Assembly: GCA_035635555.1 (NCBI GenBank)
Contig: DASQAT010000046.1
Location: forward strand, 248,001 to 312,000
Direction of reading: 5' to 3'
From: Candidatus Dormiibacterota bacterium
GTDB lineage: Bacteria > Acidobacteriota > Polarisedimenticolia > Gp22-AA2
Length of the DNA stretch: 64,000 bases
Below are positions 9,375 to 54,573 of this stretch, in pieces. The notes beneath the pieces are model-generated. The model saw nothing but the letters and a program-made list of their open reading frames with translations, ran no database searches and was not told the origin of the DNA. Position 1 is the stretch's first letter, and the number at the start of each line of letters is the position of its first letter. The translations under genes were made by a program, and so were the position numbers.

Positions 9375-10607
9375 ATGGACCAGATGAAGACCTCTCTTCC
9401 GGCCGATGACCCGTCCGCCCCCGCGGAACGGAGCGGCACCGTCCTCGTGGTCGACGACGATCAGCGCAACGTGCGCTTGATGGAATCGATCCTGAGGGGC
9501 AGCGGATACCAGGTTGTGAAAGCCTACAACGGCGAGGATGCACTTCGCCTCGTCGAGACGGCGCCGCCCGACATGCTCCTGCTCGACGTGATGATGCCGA
9601 GGATGAGCGGGTTCGAGCTGTGCCAGAGGCTCAAGGACCGCTACGAGACAAGGCTCCTGCCGATCATCATGGTCACGGCCCTGAACGCGCTCGAGGACAA
9701 GGTCCAGGCGCTGGAGTACGGCGCCGATGATTTCCTGAGCAAGCCGATCAACAAGGTGGAGCTCCTCGCGAAGGTGCGTTCGGTCCTGCGCGTCAAGGCC
9801 CTGCACGACGAGCTGGAGAAGAATCGCCTGGAGATCGAGAAGAAGAACCAGAAGCTCATCCGGATGGAAGGGTTCAAGGAATCGATGATGCAGATGGTGG
9901 TCCACGACCTCAAGAACCCGCTCGCCAGCATCATGGGCAACGTGCAGCTCATCCAGATGAGCGAGGAGACCGTGAACCCCGCGCGGCTCAAAGAACTGCT
10001 GCAGCGCACGCAGGAGAGCGCCCGGCAGCTGATGCGGATGATCCTCAACATCCTGCAGATCGGCAAGCTCGAAGAGCAGAAAATGCCGCTCAACCTGGAG
10101 CGCGTCACCCTGCGTCACCTGGCTCAGGAAAACGTGGACGAGATGACGGGGCTGAGCGCGCGCGACAACATTCGCGTTGAGAACCGGGTCCCTCCGGACC
10201 TGCCGTCGCCGCTGGCGGATCGGGAATTGATCAGCCGCGTCATCGCCAACCTTCTGAACAACGCGTTCAAGCACACGCCGGGCGGAGGTCAGGTGATCAT
10301 CGACGCCCGGCGGGAGGAGGACGCGGTGGTTCTCACGGTCAGCGACACGGGCGAGGGCATCCCCGAAGACCTGCAACCGCGCATCTTCGAGAAGTTCGTG
10401 GGGGGCGAATCGGACACCTCCAAGCGCATGCTCTACGACTCCGGGCTGGGGCTCACGTTCTGCCGTCTCGCGGTCGAGTGCCACGGCGGCAGCATCTGGC
10501 TGAAGAGCAAGCCCGGAGAAGGCACGACCGTCTTCATCTCCCTCGCTCTGGCGGGTCCCTCGGAGGGAAAAGCCGGGGCGCCGCGAGCCGGGGCCACGGC
10601 CGCATGA
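9375..10607 (+). CDS. response regulator-histidine kinase (REC-HisKA-HATPase)
   Basis: This cytosolic 410-aa protein has the order opposite to the preceding kinase: an N-terminal receiver (about 20-140, Asp71 in L-L-D-V-M-M-P-R-M-S-G), a coiled coil, then HisKA with His177 in V-V-H-D-L-K-N-P-L and an ATPase domain with N-L-L-N-N-A-F-K-H-T, D-T-G-E-G-I and S-G-L-G-L. No membrane segment is present. It starts 4 bp after the hybrid kinase, so the two are translated from one message, and phosphate could pass from the first kinase's receiver network to this receiver. Partner specificity is inference. Confidence 0.93.
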   Translation: MDQMKTSLPADDPSAPAERSGTVLVVDDDQRNVRLMESILRGSGYQVVKAYNGEDALRLVETAPPDMLLLDVMMPRMSGFELCQRLKDRYETRLLPIIMVTALNALEDKVQALEYGADDFLSKPINKVELLAKVRSVLRVKALHDELEKNRLEIEKKNQKLIRMEGFKESMMQMVVHDLKNPLASIMGNVQLIQMSEETVNPARLKELLQRTQESARQLMRMILNILQIGKLEEQKMPLNLERVTLRHLAQENVDEMTGLSARDNIRVENRVPPDLPSPLADRELISRVIANLLNNAFKHTPGGGQVIIDARREEDAVVLTVSDTGEGIPEDLQPRIFEKFVGGESDTSKRMLYDSGLGLTFCRLAVECHGGSIWLKSKPGEGTTVFISLALAGPSEGKAGAPRAGATAA

Positions 10608-12151
10608 GCGCGGACACGGCCGCGGCCCCCGCCGGCAGCGATCTGTCGGAGGCTCCGAAGACGCCGCGGGGATTCTGCTCTCCCGCCGCGCTGGCCGAGC
10701 TCATCCGCGACCTCTATCTGGACGAGAAGACCGGCACGCTTCACCTGTCGCGCAGCGGCGTGGAGAAGAGGATTCTCCTCGATCGCGGCATGATCATGAC
10801 GGCGTCCTCCTCCCTGGCGGACGAGACTCTCGCCGCCGTCCTGGTCGAGCGCGGCTGGATGCAGGCGGAGGAGGCCGAGGCGCTGAAGGGCCTGGACGAT
10901 CGTCAGGTGGGTGAAATCGCCGCGCGCCGGGGGCTCCTGACCTCCCCGATGCTGCAGCAGGCCAACCGCGATCTCGCGCAGTGCATCCTCACCGCCCTGT
11001 TCCGCTGGGACGACATCGAGTACCGGTTCGAGGAGGGACCGGTGACCGCGGGGCTTCTGGAGAGCGACGTTGTCGTCAGCTTCGAGATGATCATCCGGGC
11101 CCTGCGCTCGATGGTCGGATTCGAGTCCATCCGCGAGGCTCTCGTGCGGCAGGATCGGACCCTGCGGCTGTCGGACCAGGTCTATCTCCCGGTCGACCGC
11201 CTGACGCTGGCGCCCATCGAAGGGTTCCTCCTCTCACGCGTGGACGGTCAGGCGAAGGTTCGCGACGTCCTGGCGCAGATGCCCCAGGCCGACGAGGAGG
11301 CCGCGACGCGGTTCCTGTTCGGACTCCTGATTCTCGGCCTGGTCAATTTCGCCCCTGCGATCTCGGCCGGCCCCCTCAGCTGCCGGGACCTCGTGCGCGG
11401 CGAGGAAGAGAAGAAGAAGCGCGAAGATCGCGAGCGGTCGGAGGTGACGGACTTCTACAGGGTGGCCCAGCAGGGGACGCCTCAGACGATCCTCGGGATC
11501 ACCGAGGAGGCGACCCAGGAGCGCGTGAAGACGGCCTACCTCGAGCGCAAGGAGCGATTCCAGCCCGCGCGTTTCATGAAAAAGGTTCAACAGGACCTCC
11601 GGGAAGAGCTGCAGATCATCGAAGCGCGCCTCCTCGAAGCGTTTCTCAAGGTTCGATCGGAGAAGCTGTTCGCGGCCAGGGCCGCGGGGCAGGGGACCGA
11701 GAAGGTGGTCAACCTCGACCTGGAGAGCCTGTCGCTCCGCAAGGAGCTGACCAAGACCGAGAAGCAGTCGATGGAGGAGGAGAAGAGCCGCATGGCCGAG
11801 CAGTTCTTCACCAAGGCCAGGGACTACTTCAAGATGGGGGACTACTTCGACTGCATCCGCTACTGCGAGTTCGCCACGTCGTACAGCGATCGGAACGCCG
11901 CAGTCTTCGGTCTCCTGGGGCAGGCCCTGATGCGCAACCCCGACTACCGGTGGCAGAAGAGGGCGGAAACCGCGTTCCTGCGCGCCGCGGAGCTCGAGCC
12001 GTTCAATCCAGGCCACTTCGTGGCCCTGGGGCATTTCTACGAATCGCACGGGCTCCTGGCCAAGGCCAGGAGGGAGTACGAGAAAACGCTGGAGCTCGTC
12101 CCGACCCACGCCGAGGCCCTGGCGTCGCTCCGCGCTCTCGAGAAGAAATAG
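10604..12151 (+). CDS. DUF4388/J-like/TPR protein of the signalling operon
   Basis: ATG 10604 overlaps the kinase stop by 4 bp (ATGA). Three parts can be seen in 515 aa. The N-terminus (about 20-100) resembles the DUF4388 (PATAN) domain, with L-Y-L-D-E-K-T-G-T-L-H-L and R-I-L-L-D-R-G. Around residue 290-330 a DnaJ-like segment appears (I-L-G-I-T-E-E-A-T-Q-E-R-V-K-T-A-Y), without the catalytic H-P-D tripeptide. The C-terminus has TPR-like helices (A-R-D-Y-F-K-M-G-D-Y-F-D-C, A-R-R-E-Y-E-K-T-L-E-L). DUF4388 proteins are often found with receiver domains in other bacteria, so an adaptor or output role for the two-component genes upstream is plausible but unproven. Confidence 0.8.
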   Translation: MSADTAAAPAGSDLSEAPKTPRGFCSPAALAELIRDLYLDEKTGTLHLSRSGVEKRILLDRGMIMTASSSLADETLAAVLVERGWMQAEEAEALKGLDDRQVGEIAARRGLLTSPMLQQANRDLAQCILTALFRWDDIEYRFEEGPVTAGLLESDVVVSFEMIIRALRSMVGFESIREALVRQDRTLRLSDQVYLPVDRLTLAPIEGFLLSRVDGQAKVRDVLAQMPQADEEAATRFLFGLLILGLVNFAPAISAGPLSCRDLVRGEEEKKKREDRERSEVTDFYRVAQQGTPQTILGITEEATQERVKTAYLERKERFQPARFMKKVQQDLREELQIIEARLLEAFLKVRSEKLFAARAAGQGTEKVVNLDLESLSLRKELTKTEKQSMEEEKSRMAEQFFTKARDYFKMGDYFDCIRYCEFATSYSDRNAAVFGLLGQALMRNPDYRWQKRAETAFLRAAELEPFNPGHFVALGHFYESHGLLAKARREYEKTLELVPTHAEALASLRALEKK

Positions 12152-51225: not shown

Positions 51226-53241
51226 ATGGTCGAGCGTCCGTCCTTCATGAGAAGGTGCTTGACCCGCGGCCCGGCGACCGTCGCCGTGGCGCTGCTCCTC
51301 GGGTCCACCGTCGCTCCCGCGCGCGGGCAGGAGCCCGAGGTCATCGTCCTCGATCCGAACCACCCGATCATCCAGAACCCGGGGACGATCCCCCCGCCTG
51401 CCGGCGGCGGGGCGGGTCCTTCAGGGGAGACGGCGGCCGCCGACGTGGCGCCCCTCCTGGAGGGCGTGAACGCGCGCGAGGTCCTCGCCGAACTGTGGTT
51501 CAAGGAGCGTGCGCTGCTGCAGCGCGGGGAATCGGTCGAGGCCGCCCGACTGATCGAGACGGCACTCGATTTCATGAAGCGCGAAGGGCTCAGGGGAGCG
51601 CCCCAGATCGCCGGGGCCTTCTTGGCCGAGGCCCGCCGCCACCTGGACGAGGGTGATTACCGCGGAGCGCAGGAGAATTTCCGGCTCGCGTCCCGTTTCG
51701 ATCCGGCGCTGGTCGCGGCCCACCTGGGTCTGGCGATCGCCCTCGTGCGCGGGGACCGGGACCTTTCGGGGGCTGTCGGAGAGACCTGGTCCGCCCTCAA
51801 GATCTGGGTGAGCGACGCGGACTCCGTGTACCAGCAGACCGGCAATGGACTGCTCATCGTCTACCTGGGGCTGTGTCTCGGAGTCGCCGCTGCTCTCCTG
51901 CTGATCTGTCTGCACATTTCGCCGGCGTTCTTCCACGACCTGCGGGAGCGCTACGCGAGGACCCTGTCCGACGAATCGGCGCGTCTGCTGGGCTGGGCGC
52001 TCATGGTGCTGCCGATTCTTGTCCTGGCACCGTTCGTCTGGCTCCTGTCCTCCTGGACGGTGCTGTTCTTTCCCTATTTCAGGAGGGCGGAGAGACTCCT
52101 CGCGCTCCTGGCGCTGGGCCTGCTGATCGGGACGGGTCCCGTGGGATGCGTGGTGGACTGGATCGCGGGGACCGCGGTCGATCCCGGGGCGCGGGCGCTC
52201 ATTCGAACGCTCCGCGGAGGCTACGACGTCCAGGATCTCAAGGCGCTCGAGCGGCTGGCCACGGAGCATCCGGACGACCCGATGTTTCCGTTCGTCCTGG
52301 CCTCGATGCACCGCATGGCCGGAAGGTTCGACGAGGCGATGAACCTGTACAAGCGGGTGCTTGCAATCGATCGGGGGAACGCGCGCGCCATGGTGAATCT
52401 CGCCAACTTGAACGCGCTCCGCCAGGAGTTCTCGATCGCCCAGAATCTGTATAAGAAGGCGGGGGACATCGACCCGACCCTCGCGATCGCCCATTACAAC
52501 AGCCACCTCGCCCATCTCGAGGCCTTCCACCTCGAATCGGCGGACCAGGAACTGAAGGCCGCGCGACGCATCGACGACGCGCTGGTCACCGCGCTTCTGG
52601 CGCAGGGGAACGAAGGTCGCGCCAAGAGGACGCCGGCCGACCTCGGATACACGCGCGCGGAGATCTGGAAGCGGGCGCTCTCGCTGCGGCTCGAGCAGGG
52701 CGTGCGGTCGACCTGGTCGCGCGCTCTCTCGGCCCCGGCGACAGTCGCCGGCGGAGCCGGGCTCCTTCTGGCGCTCATCCTTCCCGGGTTCGGAGTGGCG
52801 CCCCGCTCCACCGCGGCGCGGCGGTGCCGGCGCTGCGGGAGGCCGTTCTGCCGGCGCTGCCGGGTCGGTTCGAAGGACCCCGACCACTGTTCCCAGTGCG
52901 TGCATCTGTTCATCCTGCGCGACGGGCTGGCGCCAACCGTCAAGAGCAGGAAGATGGAAGAGGTCGTGCGGTACCGGCGCCGCGTCTGGGTCGGGCGGAG
53001 ACTGCTGAGCCTTCCGCTCCCGGGGAGCGGACATGTCCTGGGCGGCAGGTCCTGGCTCGGATCGCTCCTTCTTGCCTGCTGGTGCGGGGTCTGGCTGGGA
53101 ATCCTCCTGAAGGACCAGCTTCTCGTCCCCGCGGAGGCGATCACCTCGGCCAATCTGGGAGCCGACGCGGTGCTCGGTTCGTTCGGACTGCTCGTCTGGC
53201 TGATCGGAAATCTGTCGTCGCAGGAAGCCGAGAAGGAGTGA
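51226..53241 (+). CDS. polytopic membrane protein with TPR repeats and a zinc-finger module
   Basis: 671 aa. Signal or anchor (A-T-V-A-V-A-L-L-L-G-S-T-V-A-P-A-R-G), helical TPR-like region (about 85-185), membrane segments near 205, 260 and 290, a second TPR region (about 335-455: A-G-R-F-D-E-A-M-N-L-Y-K-R-V-L-A-I-D), another hydrophobic stretch (about 505-525), then a cysteine module C-R-R-C-G-R-P-F-C-R-R-C with a later C-S-Q-C, and two final hydrophobic segments. No known enzyme domain. ATG 51247 is an alternative that fits a signal peptide better. It stands 6 bp upstream of the DUF4388 gene. Confidence 0.72.
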   Translation: MVERPSFMRRCLTRGPATVAVALLLGSTVAPARGQEPEVIVLDPNHPIIQNPGTIPPPAGGGAGPSGETAAADVAPLLEGVNAREVLAELWFKERALLQRGESVEAARLIETALDFMKREGLRGAPQIAGAFLAEARRHLDEGDYRGAQENFRLASRFDPALVAAHLGLAIALVRGDRDLSGAVGETWSALKIWVSDADSVYQQTGNGLLIVYLGLCLGVAAALLLICLHISPAFFHDLRERYARTLSDESARLLGWALMVLPILVLAPFVWLLSSWTVLFFPYFRRAERLLALLALGLLIGTGPVGCVVDWIAGTAVDPGARALIRTLRGGYDVQDLKALERLATEHPDDPMFPFVLASMHRMAGRFDEAMNLYKRVLAIDRGNARAMVNLANLNALRQEFSIAQNLYKKAGDIDPTLAIAHYNSHLAHLEAFHLESADQELKAARRIDDALVTALLAQGNEGRAKRTPADLGYTRAEIWKRALSLRLEQGVRSTWSRALSAPATVAGGAGLLLALILPGFGVAPRSTAARRCRRCGRPFCRRCRVGSKDPDHCSQCVHLFILRDGLAPTVKSRKMEEVVRYRRRVWVGRRLLSLPLPGSGHVLGGRSWLGSLLLACWCGVWLGILLKDQLLVPAEAITSANLGADAVLGSFGLLVWLIGNLSSQEAEKE

Positions 53242-53247
53242 CGCGGC

Positions 53248-54480
53248 ATGGCGCTGAAGGGGACGCTGAAGGATTTCAGTCTGGCGGACATCTTCCAGCT
53301 CATCGGCATCCAGCATAAGACCGGCGTGCTGACTCTCAAGAGCGACAAGGAAGTGGTCACCGTCTCGTTCGTCGAGGGGAACGTCGTCTCGGCCGATGCG
53401 CTGCACCGGAGGCTTGAGGACAGGATCGGCACCGTGCTCGTGAAATCCGGGCGCATCACCGAGGCGCAGCTCCAGGAGGCCCTGCGCATCCAGAAGAGCA
53501 CGCTGAAACGGATGGGAAACATCCTGGTCGAGAACAAGTTCATCGACCCCAACATTCTGCGGGAGGCCCTGCAGATCCAGATCAGCCACATGGTCCACCG
53601 GCTGTTCCGTTGGCGCGACGGCGAGTACGACTTCTCGCAGGAGGAGCGCGTCGACTACGACAAGGAGCATGTCGTTCCGATGTCCGCGGAGAGCATCCTC
53701 ATGGAGGGCGCCCGCATTCTCGACGAATGGCCGATGATAGAGAAGGGGATACGATCCTTCTCGGCCGTCTACCGGCACGCCAACGTCGAAATCGCCGCCG
53801 CCCCGAAGGGGGCCGCCGCGACCGCGGGCAAGGACGACGCGGCCCGCGCCATCACCTTGAGCGATGAAGAGCGCAAGGTCTACCAGCTGGTGGACGGCCA
53901 CCGCACGGTGCAGGAGATCGTCGAGCGTTGCAGTCTGAGCGAATTCGACACCTGCCGGCTCCTCTACGAACTGATTGGACGCCAGCTCCTCGAGGAGGTC
54001 AAGAGCGTCGGCCCCAGGACGGCACCGGCGGCCTCCCCGGCCCGGGCGGTCTCCGGAACCCCGGCAGCCTCCAGAGCGCTTGTCGCCCTCGGGTATCTGA
54101 TCCTGGTGCTCCTGGCGGGGGGCCTCGTGACGCGCCACGCCGAAACCATTGCGCGCGGGCTCCTGCGAGGGGAGGCGGCTGCGCCGTACCTGAATCCTCT
54201 CATCGGCGGGGAGCAGGCGCGCTCGATCCGGGGTTCGATCACCCTCAGCCGGATGCAGCGGGTCGATTTCGCGATCCAGGTCTACTTCCTGCTTAACCGG
54301 GGATATCCCGAGAACCTGAGATATCTCGTCACGAGCCATCTTCTCAAGCCACAGGCCATCCTGGATCCTCTCGGCAGACCGTTCGAGTATCGGATCACGC
54401 CCGGTGGATACAGTATCTCCTTCGCGCCGGATGGGAATCCTGTCAATCGAGTCGAGATTAGCAGTGCGCCATCCGGGTAG
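53248..54480 (+). CDS. DUF4388 protein with C-terminal pseudopilin-like domain
   Basis: 410 aa. Residues 1-100 match DUF4388 (G-T-L-K-D-F-S-L-A-D-I-F-Q-L-I-G and T-G-V-L-T-L). A helical region (about 65-160, with I-T-E-A-Q-L-Q-E-A-L) and a winged-helix-like part (about 205-255, V-Y-Q-L-V-D-G-H-R-T-V-Q-E-I) follow. One transmembrane segment lies near 275-292 (L-V-A-L-G-Y-L-I-L-V-L-L-A-G-G). The final 80 residues contain R-G-Y-P-E-N-L-R-Y-L and L-D-P-L-G-R-P-F-E-Y-R, like the globular end of type II secretion major pseudopilins. Unusual fusion; function unknown. Confidence 0.75.
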   Translation: MALKGTLKDFSLADIFQLIGIQHKTGVLTLKSDKEVVTVSFVEGNVVSADALHRRLEDRIGTVLVKSGRITEAQLQEALRIQKSTLKRMGNILVENKFIDPNILREALQIQISHMVHRLFRWRDGEYDFSQEERVDYDKEHVVPMSAESILMEGARILDEWPMIEKGIRSFSAVYRHANVEIAAAPKGAAATAGKDDAARAITLSDEERKVYQLVDGHRTVQEIVERCSLSEFDTCRLLYELIGRQLLEEVKSVGPRTAPAASPARAVSGTPAASRALVALGYLILVLLAGGLVTRHAETIARGLLRGEAAAPYLNPLIGGEQARSIRGSITLSRMQRVDFAIQVYFLLNRGYPENLRYLVTSHLLKPQAILDPLGRPFEYRITPGGYSISFAPDGNPVNRVEISSAPSG

Positions 54481-54491
54481 CTGTCTACCTG

Positions 54492-54540
54492 ACAAGTAAC
54501 TTACAAATAACGACTTATTGAACGTACGAAGCACAAATAA
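54492..54540 (+). repeat. ACAAATAA repeats in the AT-rich leader of dnaK
   Basis: ACAAGTAAC (54492-54500), ACAAATAAC (54503-54511) and ACAAATAAT (54533-54541) are spaced 11 and 30 bp apart, about one and three helical turns. They lie in the most AT-rich stretch of the window, upstream of the dnaK promoter. Confidence 0.45.
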
Positions 54541-54543
54541 TAA

Positions 54544-54564
54544 CTTGACAATGATACACTCAAT
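54544..54564 (+). promoter_or_regulatory. HAIR-like HspR operator
   Basis: CTTGACA-N7-ACTCAAT matches 11 of 14 conserved positions of the actinobacterial HAIR element (CTTGAGT-N7-ACTCAAG). It covers the -35 box and half the spacer of the dnaK promoter, and the hspR gene is in the same operon. Confidence 0.6.
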
Positions 54565-54573
54565 ATTTATACT
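54545..54573 (+). promoter_or_regulatory. sigma-70 promoter of the dnaK operon
   Basis: TTGACA (54545-54550), 17-bp spacer, TATACT (54568-54573). Leader of about 35 nt with AAGGAGG before ATG 54617. Confidence 0.75.

What the first reader, a model, noticed from the sequence alone, without database searches (positions are those of the whole stretch)
53248..54480. DUF4388 joined through a membrane segment to a pseudopilin-like domain
The C-terminal R-G-Y-P-E-N-L...L-D-P-L-G-R-P-F-E-Y pattern resembles the globular part of GspG, but here it follows an internal transmembrane helix and a cytoplasmic DUF4388/winged-helix part. A cytoplasm-to-periplasm link between DUF4388 and a secretion-like fold would be new to me.
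Basis: partly seen in the sequence, partly recalled or inferred. Interest (0 to 1): 0.6.

Follow-up and report, generated by a model that had tools for sequence, protein, structure and literature searches.

The report
Membrane c-di-GMP receptor with pseudopilin domain
This soil-bacterium gene encodes a membrane protein whose inner half looks built to sense the signalling molecule c-di-GMP and whose outer half is folded like a building block of a secretion filament, a combination kept across much of the phylum Acidobacteriota for which I found no published description.

Summary
The 410-aa ORF at 53248-54480 is real: DUF4388/PATAN, then a winged helix, one internal TM (277-294) and a C-terminal pseudopilin-type domain. 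The window's C-terminus alone has no Pfam match, but 26 of 29 orthologue C-domains match T2SSG, four full-length orthologues pass Pfam's cut-off, the profile matches true pseudopilins (hhalign 70.7 against at most 16.5 for shuffles), and the AlphaFold model aligns best with PulG/GspG (Z 10.6).

So this is probably a transmembrane c-di-GMP receptor with a tethered, non-processable pseudopilin domain. It lacks a prepilin signal and the aspartate-rich end of GspG, so it is not a pilin.

It occurs widely in Acidobacteriota, with a TPR/zinc-ribbon membrane protein encoded immediately upstream in nearly every locus. The pilin domain is ancient but absent in some lineages that keep the rest and still have pilus/T2SS platforms.

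Best mechanism (0.45): c-di-GMP-controlled inner-membrane adaptor linking a type IV pilus/T2SS motor to the periplasm. The link to pili rests on domain analogy. New variant of a known kind.

The parts
53248..54480 (+). Whole gene, 410 aa: DUF4388/PATAN with embedded MshEN motif - winged helix - TM - pseudopilin-type domain
53257..53730 (+). DUF4388 (PATAN) domain, residues 4-161, matched in two overlapping pieces of the profile
   Evidence: PF14332 E 5e-33; two hits
53422..53493 (+). First 24-residue MshEN c-di-GMP motif, RIGTVLVKSGRITEAQLQEALRIQ (residues 59-82)
   Evidence: NF053729 58.4 bits, cut-off 38; VIA-align Z 10.6 to MshE with c-di-GMP, 40% identity over 60 residues; motif as defined in PMC5013675
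53509..53580 (+). Second 24-residue MshEN motif, RMGNILVENKFIDPNILREALQIQ (residues 88-111), after a 5-residue spacer; Gly10 is Lys here
53854..54006 (+). Winged-helix domain (residues ~203-253; aligned range in the model 163-253)
   Evidence: VIA-align Z 8.7 to the GATOR1 winged helix; weak PF24409
54076..54129 (+). Single predicted transmembrane segment (residues 277-294), not a prepilin signal
   Evidence: hydropathy and motif scan over 72 orthologues: no prepilin-type motif in any; 3.3 K+R in the 20 residues before, 2.2 in the 20 after; model helix 274-306
54139..54210 (+). Low-confidence linker (residues 298-321) between TM and the pilin-type domain; a true pseudopilin has none
   Evidence: pLDDT about 50 in this stretch; PulG residue 26 aligns with model residue 322
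54211..54471 (+). Pseudopilin (GspG/T2SSG)-type periplasmic domain, residues 322-408
51226..53241 (+). Partner gene directly upstream: TPR protein with several TM segments and a Cys-rich zinc-ribbon-like stretch
   Evidence: TPR families, hydropathy, adjacency conserved in class and phylum
54545..54573 (+). Sigma-70-like promoter of the downstream dnaK: dnaK is probably a separate transcription unit
   Evidence: 11 of 12 consensus matches; 0.4 sites expected in shuffles of the region

Best explanation
An inner-membrane, c-di-GMP-responsive adaptor. The cytoplasmic head (PATAN with an embedded tandem MshEN motif, then a winged helix) binds c-di-GMP, and through PATAN probably touches a PilB/GspE-type motor ATPase. 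One TM helix carries this state to a periplasmic, tethered pseudopilin-type domain, which cannot be processed or extracted into a filament but can pair with pilin-like folds or the assembly platform at the inner membrane. With the TPR/zinc-ribbon protein from the same operon it would switch pilus or T2SS assembly according to c-di-GMP. Shown by computation: domain make-up, motif conservation, pseudopilin fold, gene pair. Inferred: c-di-GMP binding, topology, complex with the TPR protein, motor contact, effect on assembly.
For: MshEN model 58.4 bits against a cut-off of 38, and the modelled region overlays MshE-c-di-GMP and T. thermophilus PilF GSPII-B-c-di-GMP structures. The key Gly3 and Gln24 are in 51-52 of 53 pilin-bearing orthologues in both motifs. 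The genome has many GGDEF proteins and at least three GspE/PilB-type ATPases. Published work: MshEN motifs bind c-di-GMP (PMC5013675); PATAN domains bind PilB of cyanobacteria (PMC10519157; PMC9090330). Pseudopilin fold. Conserved gene pair.
Against: No pilus or secretion motor/platform genes in the window. The pilin domain is missing in 15 sampled orthologues that keep the rest, and those genomes still have T2SSF platform proteins, so it is not essential to the core function. T2SSG-type domains also sit on lipoproteins and other anchors in this phylum, so the domain need not mean contact with a filament. No complex was modelled.
Confidence: 0.45

Rival explanations
1. A c-di-GMP-binding transmembrane regulator in which the pseudopilin-type domain is only a generic periplasmic interaction module. 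Its true business is with the TPR/zinc-ribbon partner (for example envelope or polysaccharide export), not with pili.
For: The TPR partner is more constant than the pilin domain: a hit in 70 of 75 loci, against 15 orthologues without a pilin domain. Lipoprotein-anchored and zinc-ribbon-TM-anchored T2SSG domains are common in the phylum. Loss of the pilin domain is tolerated where T2SSF platforms remain.
Against: PATAN and MshEN are both known chiefly from pilus or secretion-motor settings (PMC5013675, PMC7690835, PMC10519157), although MshEN also occurs on glycosyltransferases; a third pilus-derived part in one chain is suggestive.
Confidence: 0.35
2. A membrane-bound transcription factor of the ToxR/CadC style: the winged helix binds DNA and the periplasmic pilin-type domain senses the envelope.
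For: Winged helix at about 203-253 in the model, cytoplasmic, on the same chain as a TM and a periplasmic domain.
Against: The closest structures to the winged helix are protein-interaction winged helices (GATOR1, RPC39), with RiPP leader-binding domains lower down; family matches to DNA-binding winged helices stay below their cut-offs.
Confidence: 0.1
3. A chimaera or chance resemblance: a frame or assembly artefact, or a pattern that only looks like GspG.
For: On its own the window's C-terminus has no significant family match.
Against: Full-length orthologues in 40 of 41 class genomes and in other families of the phylum; shuffled controls clean; fold match to pseudopilins.
Confidence: 0.01

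Closest known systems
GspG/PulG major pseudopilin of type II secretion (PF08334, TIGR01710)
   Same: Fold of the periplasmic domain; helix, YP..L turn, DP-G-P-Y strand pattern
   Different: No prepilin peptidase motif, an extra linker after the TM, a 275-residue cytoplasmic N-terminus, and no aspartate-rich C-terminal end as in GspG
MshE/PilB N-terminal MshEN (GSPII) domain
   Same: Two 24-residue motifs separated by 5 residues; overlays the c-di-GMP-bound structures
   Different: Embedded in DUF4388 instead of heading an ATPase; Gly10 of the second motif often replaced
PATAN-domain regulators of cyanobacteria (PixE, PixG, PatA) and DUF4388 proteins at large
   Same: PATAN fold with alpha-helical insertion; published PATAN proteins touch PilB
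   Different: Those are PATAN-receiver proteins, not membrane-anchored with a periplasmic domain
LapD-type transmembrane c-di-GMP receptors (inside-out signalling)
   Same: Works like: c-di-GMP bound inside, output domain outside
   Different: LapD has degenerate GGDEF/EAL and HAMP parts; no shared family
GspL / PilM-PilN inner-membrane platform proteins
   Same: Cytoplasmic motor-facing part, one TM, periplasmic part (from general knowledge)
   Different: No sequence or fold relation was found or claimed

Membership tests
DUF4388 / PATAN | Match to PF14332 over its curated cut-off | tested here: met
   114 bits, cut-off 25
MshEN c-di-GMP receptor | Two 24-residue motifs separated by 5 residues, with conserved R/L/G...L...L..Q | tested here: met
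   NF053729 58.4 bits, cut-off 38; key residues counted over 68 orthologues. Gly10 of motif 2 is Lys, and many orthologues fail the paper's stricter regular expression
MshEN c-di-GMP receptor | Binds c-di-GMP | not testable with these tools
   needs a binding assay
T2SSG/GspG pseudopilin domain family | Profile match over the curated cut-off | tested here: inconclusive
   window protein itself below threshold; orthologues L041, L138, L145, L048 above 21 bits; 26 of 29 members at E <= 1
T2SSG/GspG pseudopilin domain family | Pseudopilin fold | tested here: met
   VIA-align Z 10.6, 85 residues, 2.5 A to PulG
Pilins/pseudopilins as filament subunits | N-terminal type III (prepilin) signal G-[FY]..[LIV]E and processed N-terminus | tested here: not met
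   no such motif near the TM in any of 72 orthologues; TM lies about 275 residues from the N-terminus
GspG | Aspartate-rich C-terminal end (calcium site, from general knowledge) | tested here: not met
   the window's C-terminus SFAPDGNPVNRVEISSAPSG has no such run, unlike the GspG sequences of L054-L057
Type II secretion / type IV pilus locus | Neighbouring motor, platform, secretin or prepilin genes | tested here: not met
   T2SSE and T2SSF hits of the genome lie outside the window; neighbours are a TPR protein, dnaK, hsp20, dnaJ. Secretin and prepilin peptidase families were not searched

The most novel reading that the evidence does not exclude
A tethered, non-extractable pseudopilin under direct c-di-GMP control: one protein reads c-di-GMP and the motor in the cytoplasm and caps, captures or primes pilin-type subunits at the inner membrane, giving a direct switch for pilus or T2SS assembly in Acidobacteriota.
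Probability: 0.25. Interest if true: 0.78.

Novelty: new variant of a known kind. Interest (0 to 1): 0.55.

Why it matters
c-di-GMP control of type IV pili and secretion is known through motor ATPases and PilZ-type partners. A protein that joins PATAN, a MshEN receptor and a pseudopilin domain across the membrane would be a single-chain route from the messenger to the periplasmic side of the machine, conserved across a large, poorly cultivated soil phylum. It also suggests that the GspG fold is reused off the filament: in this phylum it appears on lipoprotein and other membrane anchors as well.

Tried and rejected
The window's own C-terminus against Pfam, NCBIfam and PDB sequences found nothing: the case rests on orthologues and fold. 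Foldseek alone gave only weak E-values; the VIA-align second look settled it. The full-length Foldseek list was filled with actin-like and other weak rows over short stretches and was disregarded. Idea that loss of the pilin domain tracks loss of pili/T2SS: all 34 genomes tested, with and without the domain, have T2SSF platform proteins, so not supported. Idea that dnaK next door is functionally linked (DnaK1 binds PilB in cyanobacteria, PMC9239167): weak, because dnaK has its own promoter-like site, and among the sampled loci outside the class it is next door in only two (L137, L138). Literature: DUF4388 appears in one unrelated paper, no paper on this architecture was found; subscription journals are mostly missing from that library. 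Occurrence outside Acidobacteriota was not tested beyond one scan that reaches close relatives only.

Full report
What is there. The finding is one gene of 410 codons at 53248-54480 (+), 6 bases behind a 671-codon gene (51226-53241) and 136 bases ahead of dnaK. Codon-position composition is coding-like. A relative covering the gene is present in 40 of 41 genomes of its class at E <= 1e-49; the remaining genome is 63% complete and shows only a weaker match. The close relatives found by name are Acidobacteria MAGs.

Domains. Pfam finds DUF4388 at E 5e-33, in two overlapping pieces. NCBIfam finds the MshE-related c-di-GMP motif at residues 59-111, 58.4 bits against a cut-off of 38. This stretch is two 24-residue motifs with a 5-residue spacer, exactly the layout described for MshEN (PMC5013675). 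Over 53 pilin-bearing orthologues, Gly3 is kept in 52 and 51 and Gln24 in 52 and 51 (motif 1, motif 2); Gly10 of motif 2 is often replaced, and most orthologues fail the paper's stricter whole-motif regular expression for that reason among others. Two of three DUF4388 paralogues of the genome that were tested fall below the motif's cut-off; the third reaches 53.6 bits.

Structure. The full-length AlphaFold model (29 orthologues, pLDDT 78, pTM 0.50) shows separate parts whose mutual arrangement is not reliable. VIA-align places residues 55-116 on MshE with c-di-GMP (Z 10.6, 40% identity) and on the c-di-GMP-bound GSPII-B domain of T. thermophilus PilF, residues 163-253 on winged helices, and residues 322-410 on PulG (Z 10.6). 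The C-domain alone (pLDDT 87) aligns with pilins and pseudopilins in each of its 27 best rows, PulG first.

Is the C-domain truly pseudopilin-related? Alone, the window's sequence matches nothing. As a family it does: 26 of 29 members match T2SSG, best E 1.6e-7; 15 match GspG; four full-length orthologues exceed Pfam's curated T2SSG cut-off with DUF4388 on the same chain. Profile-profile comparison with ten true pseudopilin domains scores 70.7; 30 column-shuffles reach at most 16.5 and the reversed profile 9.6.

Is it a pilin? No. In 72 orthologues there is no prepilin-type motif at the TM. The TM lies about 275 residues into the protein, and a low-confidence linker separates it from the part equivalent to PulG residue 26. 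The aspartate-rich end seen in the GspG sequences is absent. Positive residues are somewhat more frequent before the TM than after it (3.3 against 2.2 in 20 residues), which agrees with a cytoplasmic head and a periplasmic tail but is not strong.

Family and neighbourhood. A profile of the orthologues finds matches at E <= 1e-20 in 103 of 199 genomes sampled over the phylum (some of these are paralogues). In 75 distinct loci examined, 70 carry a hit to the upstream TPR protein; of the five others, L147 and L162 are cut by a contig end. DnaK follows in the class and in two other families only. Fifteen sampled orthologues lack the pilin domain and end in a tail of 19-96 residues; on a tree of the head domains the label changes three times at least. 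So the domain is ancient and inherited, but dispensable in some lineages. All 34 genomes tested, with and without it, have T2SSF platform proteins. The head-TM-TPR pair is therefore the core, and the pilin-type domain a widespread but optional output.

The fold off the filament. In the phylum sample, T2SSG-type domains also occur without a prepilin signal: on lipoprotein-like anchors (for example L020 in this genome, 31 bits over a cut-off of 21; L061, L069, L070, L075) and behind a zinc ribbon and TM (L065, L082). This weakens any automatic inference from 'pilin fold' to 'pilus function'.

How it most likely works. Shown by computation: a cytoplasmic-type c-di-GMP receptor head, one TM, a pseudopilin-type domain, and a constant partner gene. 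From the literature: MshEN motifs bind c-di-GMP (PMC5013675); PATAN domains bind the PilB motor in Synechocystis (PMC10519157, PMC9090330). Inferred: the protein reads c-di-GMP and a motor ATPase in the cytoplasm and presents a tethered pilin-like surface in the periplasm, modulating pilus or T2SS assembly. I put this at 0.45, with 0.35 for the same receptor acting on another envelope process through its TPR partner.

Limits. No binding, topology or interaction was tested. No complex was modelled. Occurrence outside Acidobacteriota was not properly searched. The literature library lacks most subscription journals, so absence of a published description is not proof of novelty.

Noticed in passing
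window 10478-12151 (+): A second DUF4388 protein, followed on the same chain by a J-domain-like stretch and TPR-like repeats, just behind a response-regulator/histidine-kinase gene at 9375-10607 (the J-domain and TPR assignments are by eye).
   Followed up: no
L020 (own genome C6:43945-44214), L061, L069, L070, L075; L065 and L082: GspG-type (T2SSG) domains on lipoprotein-like anchors or behind a zinc ribbon and TM, without a prepilin signal: the fold seems to be reused off the filament in Acidobacteriota.
   Followed up: partly
L008 (own genome C17:10932-11378): Another DUF4388 protein with a long linker, a hydrophobic segment and a C-terminal region with no Pfam match: a second candidate DUF4388-TM-periplasm fusion in the same genome.
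   Followed up: partly
window 51226-53241 (+): The partner protein: signal-peptide-like start, TPRs, several TM segments and a CxxC-rich zinc-ribbon-like stretch; kept next to this gene across the phylum, with no family name found beyond TPR.
   Followed up: partly
L127-L129, L161, L164 (family code f32): Orthologues in which an unrelated-looking, proline-rich tail of 85-96 residues stands in place of the pilin domain.
   Followed up: no
window 51421-54534 (-): A 1037-codon open frame on the opposite strand, taken to be a shadow frame of the G+C-rich genes.
   Followed up: no
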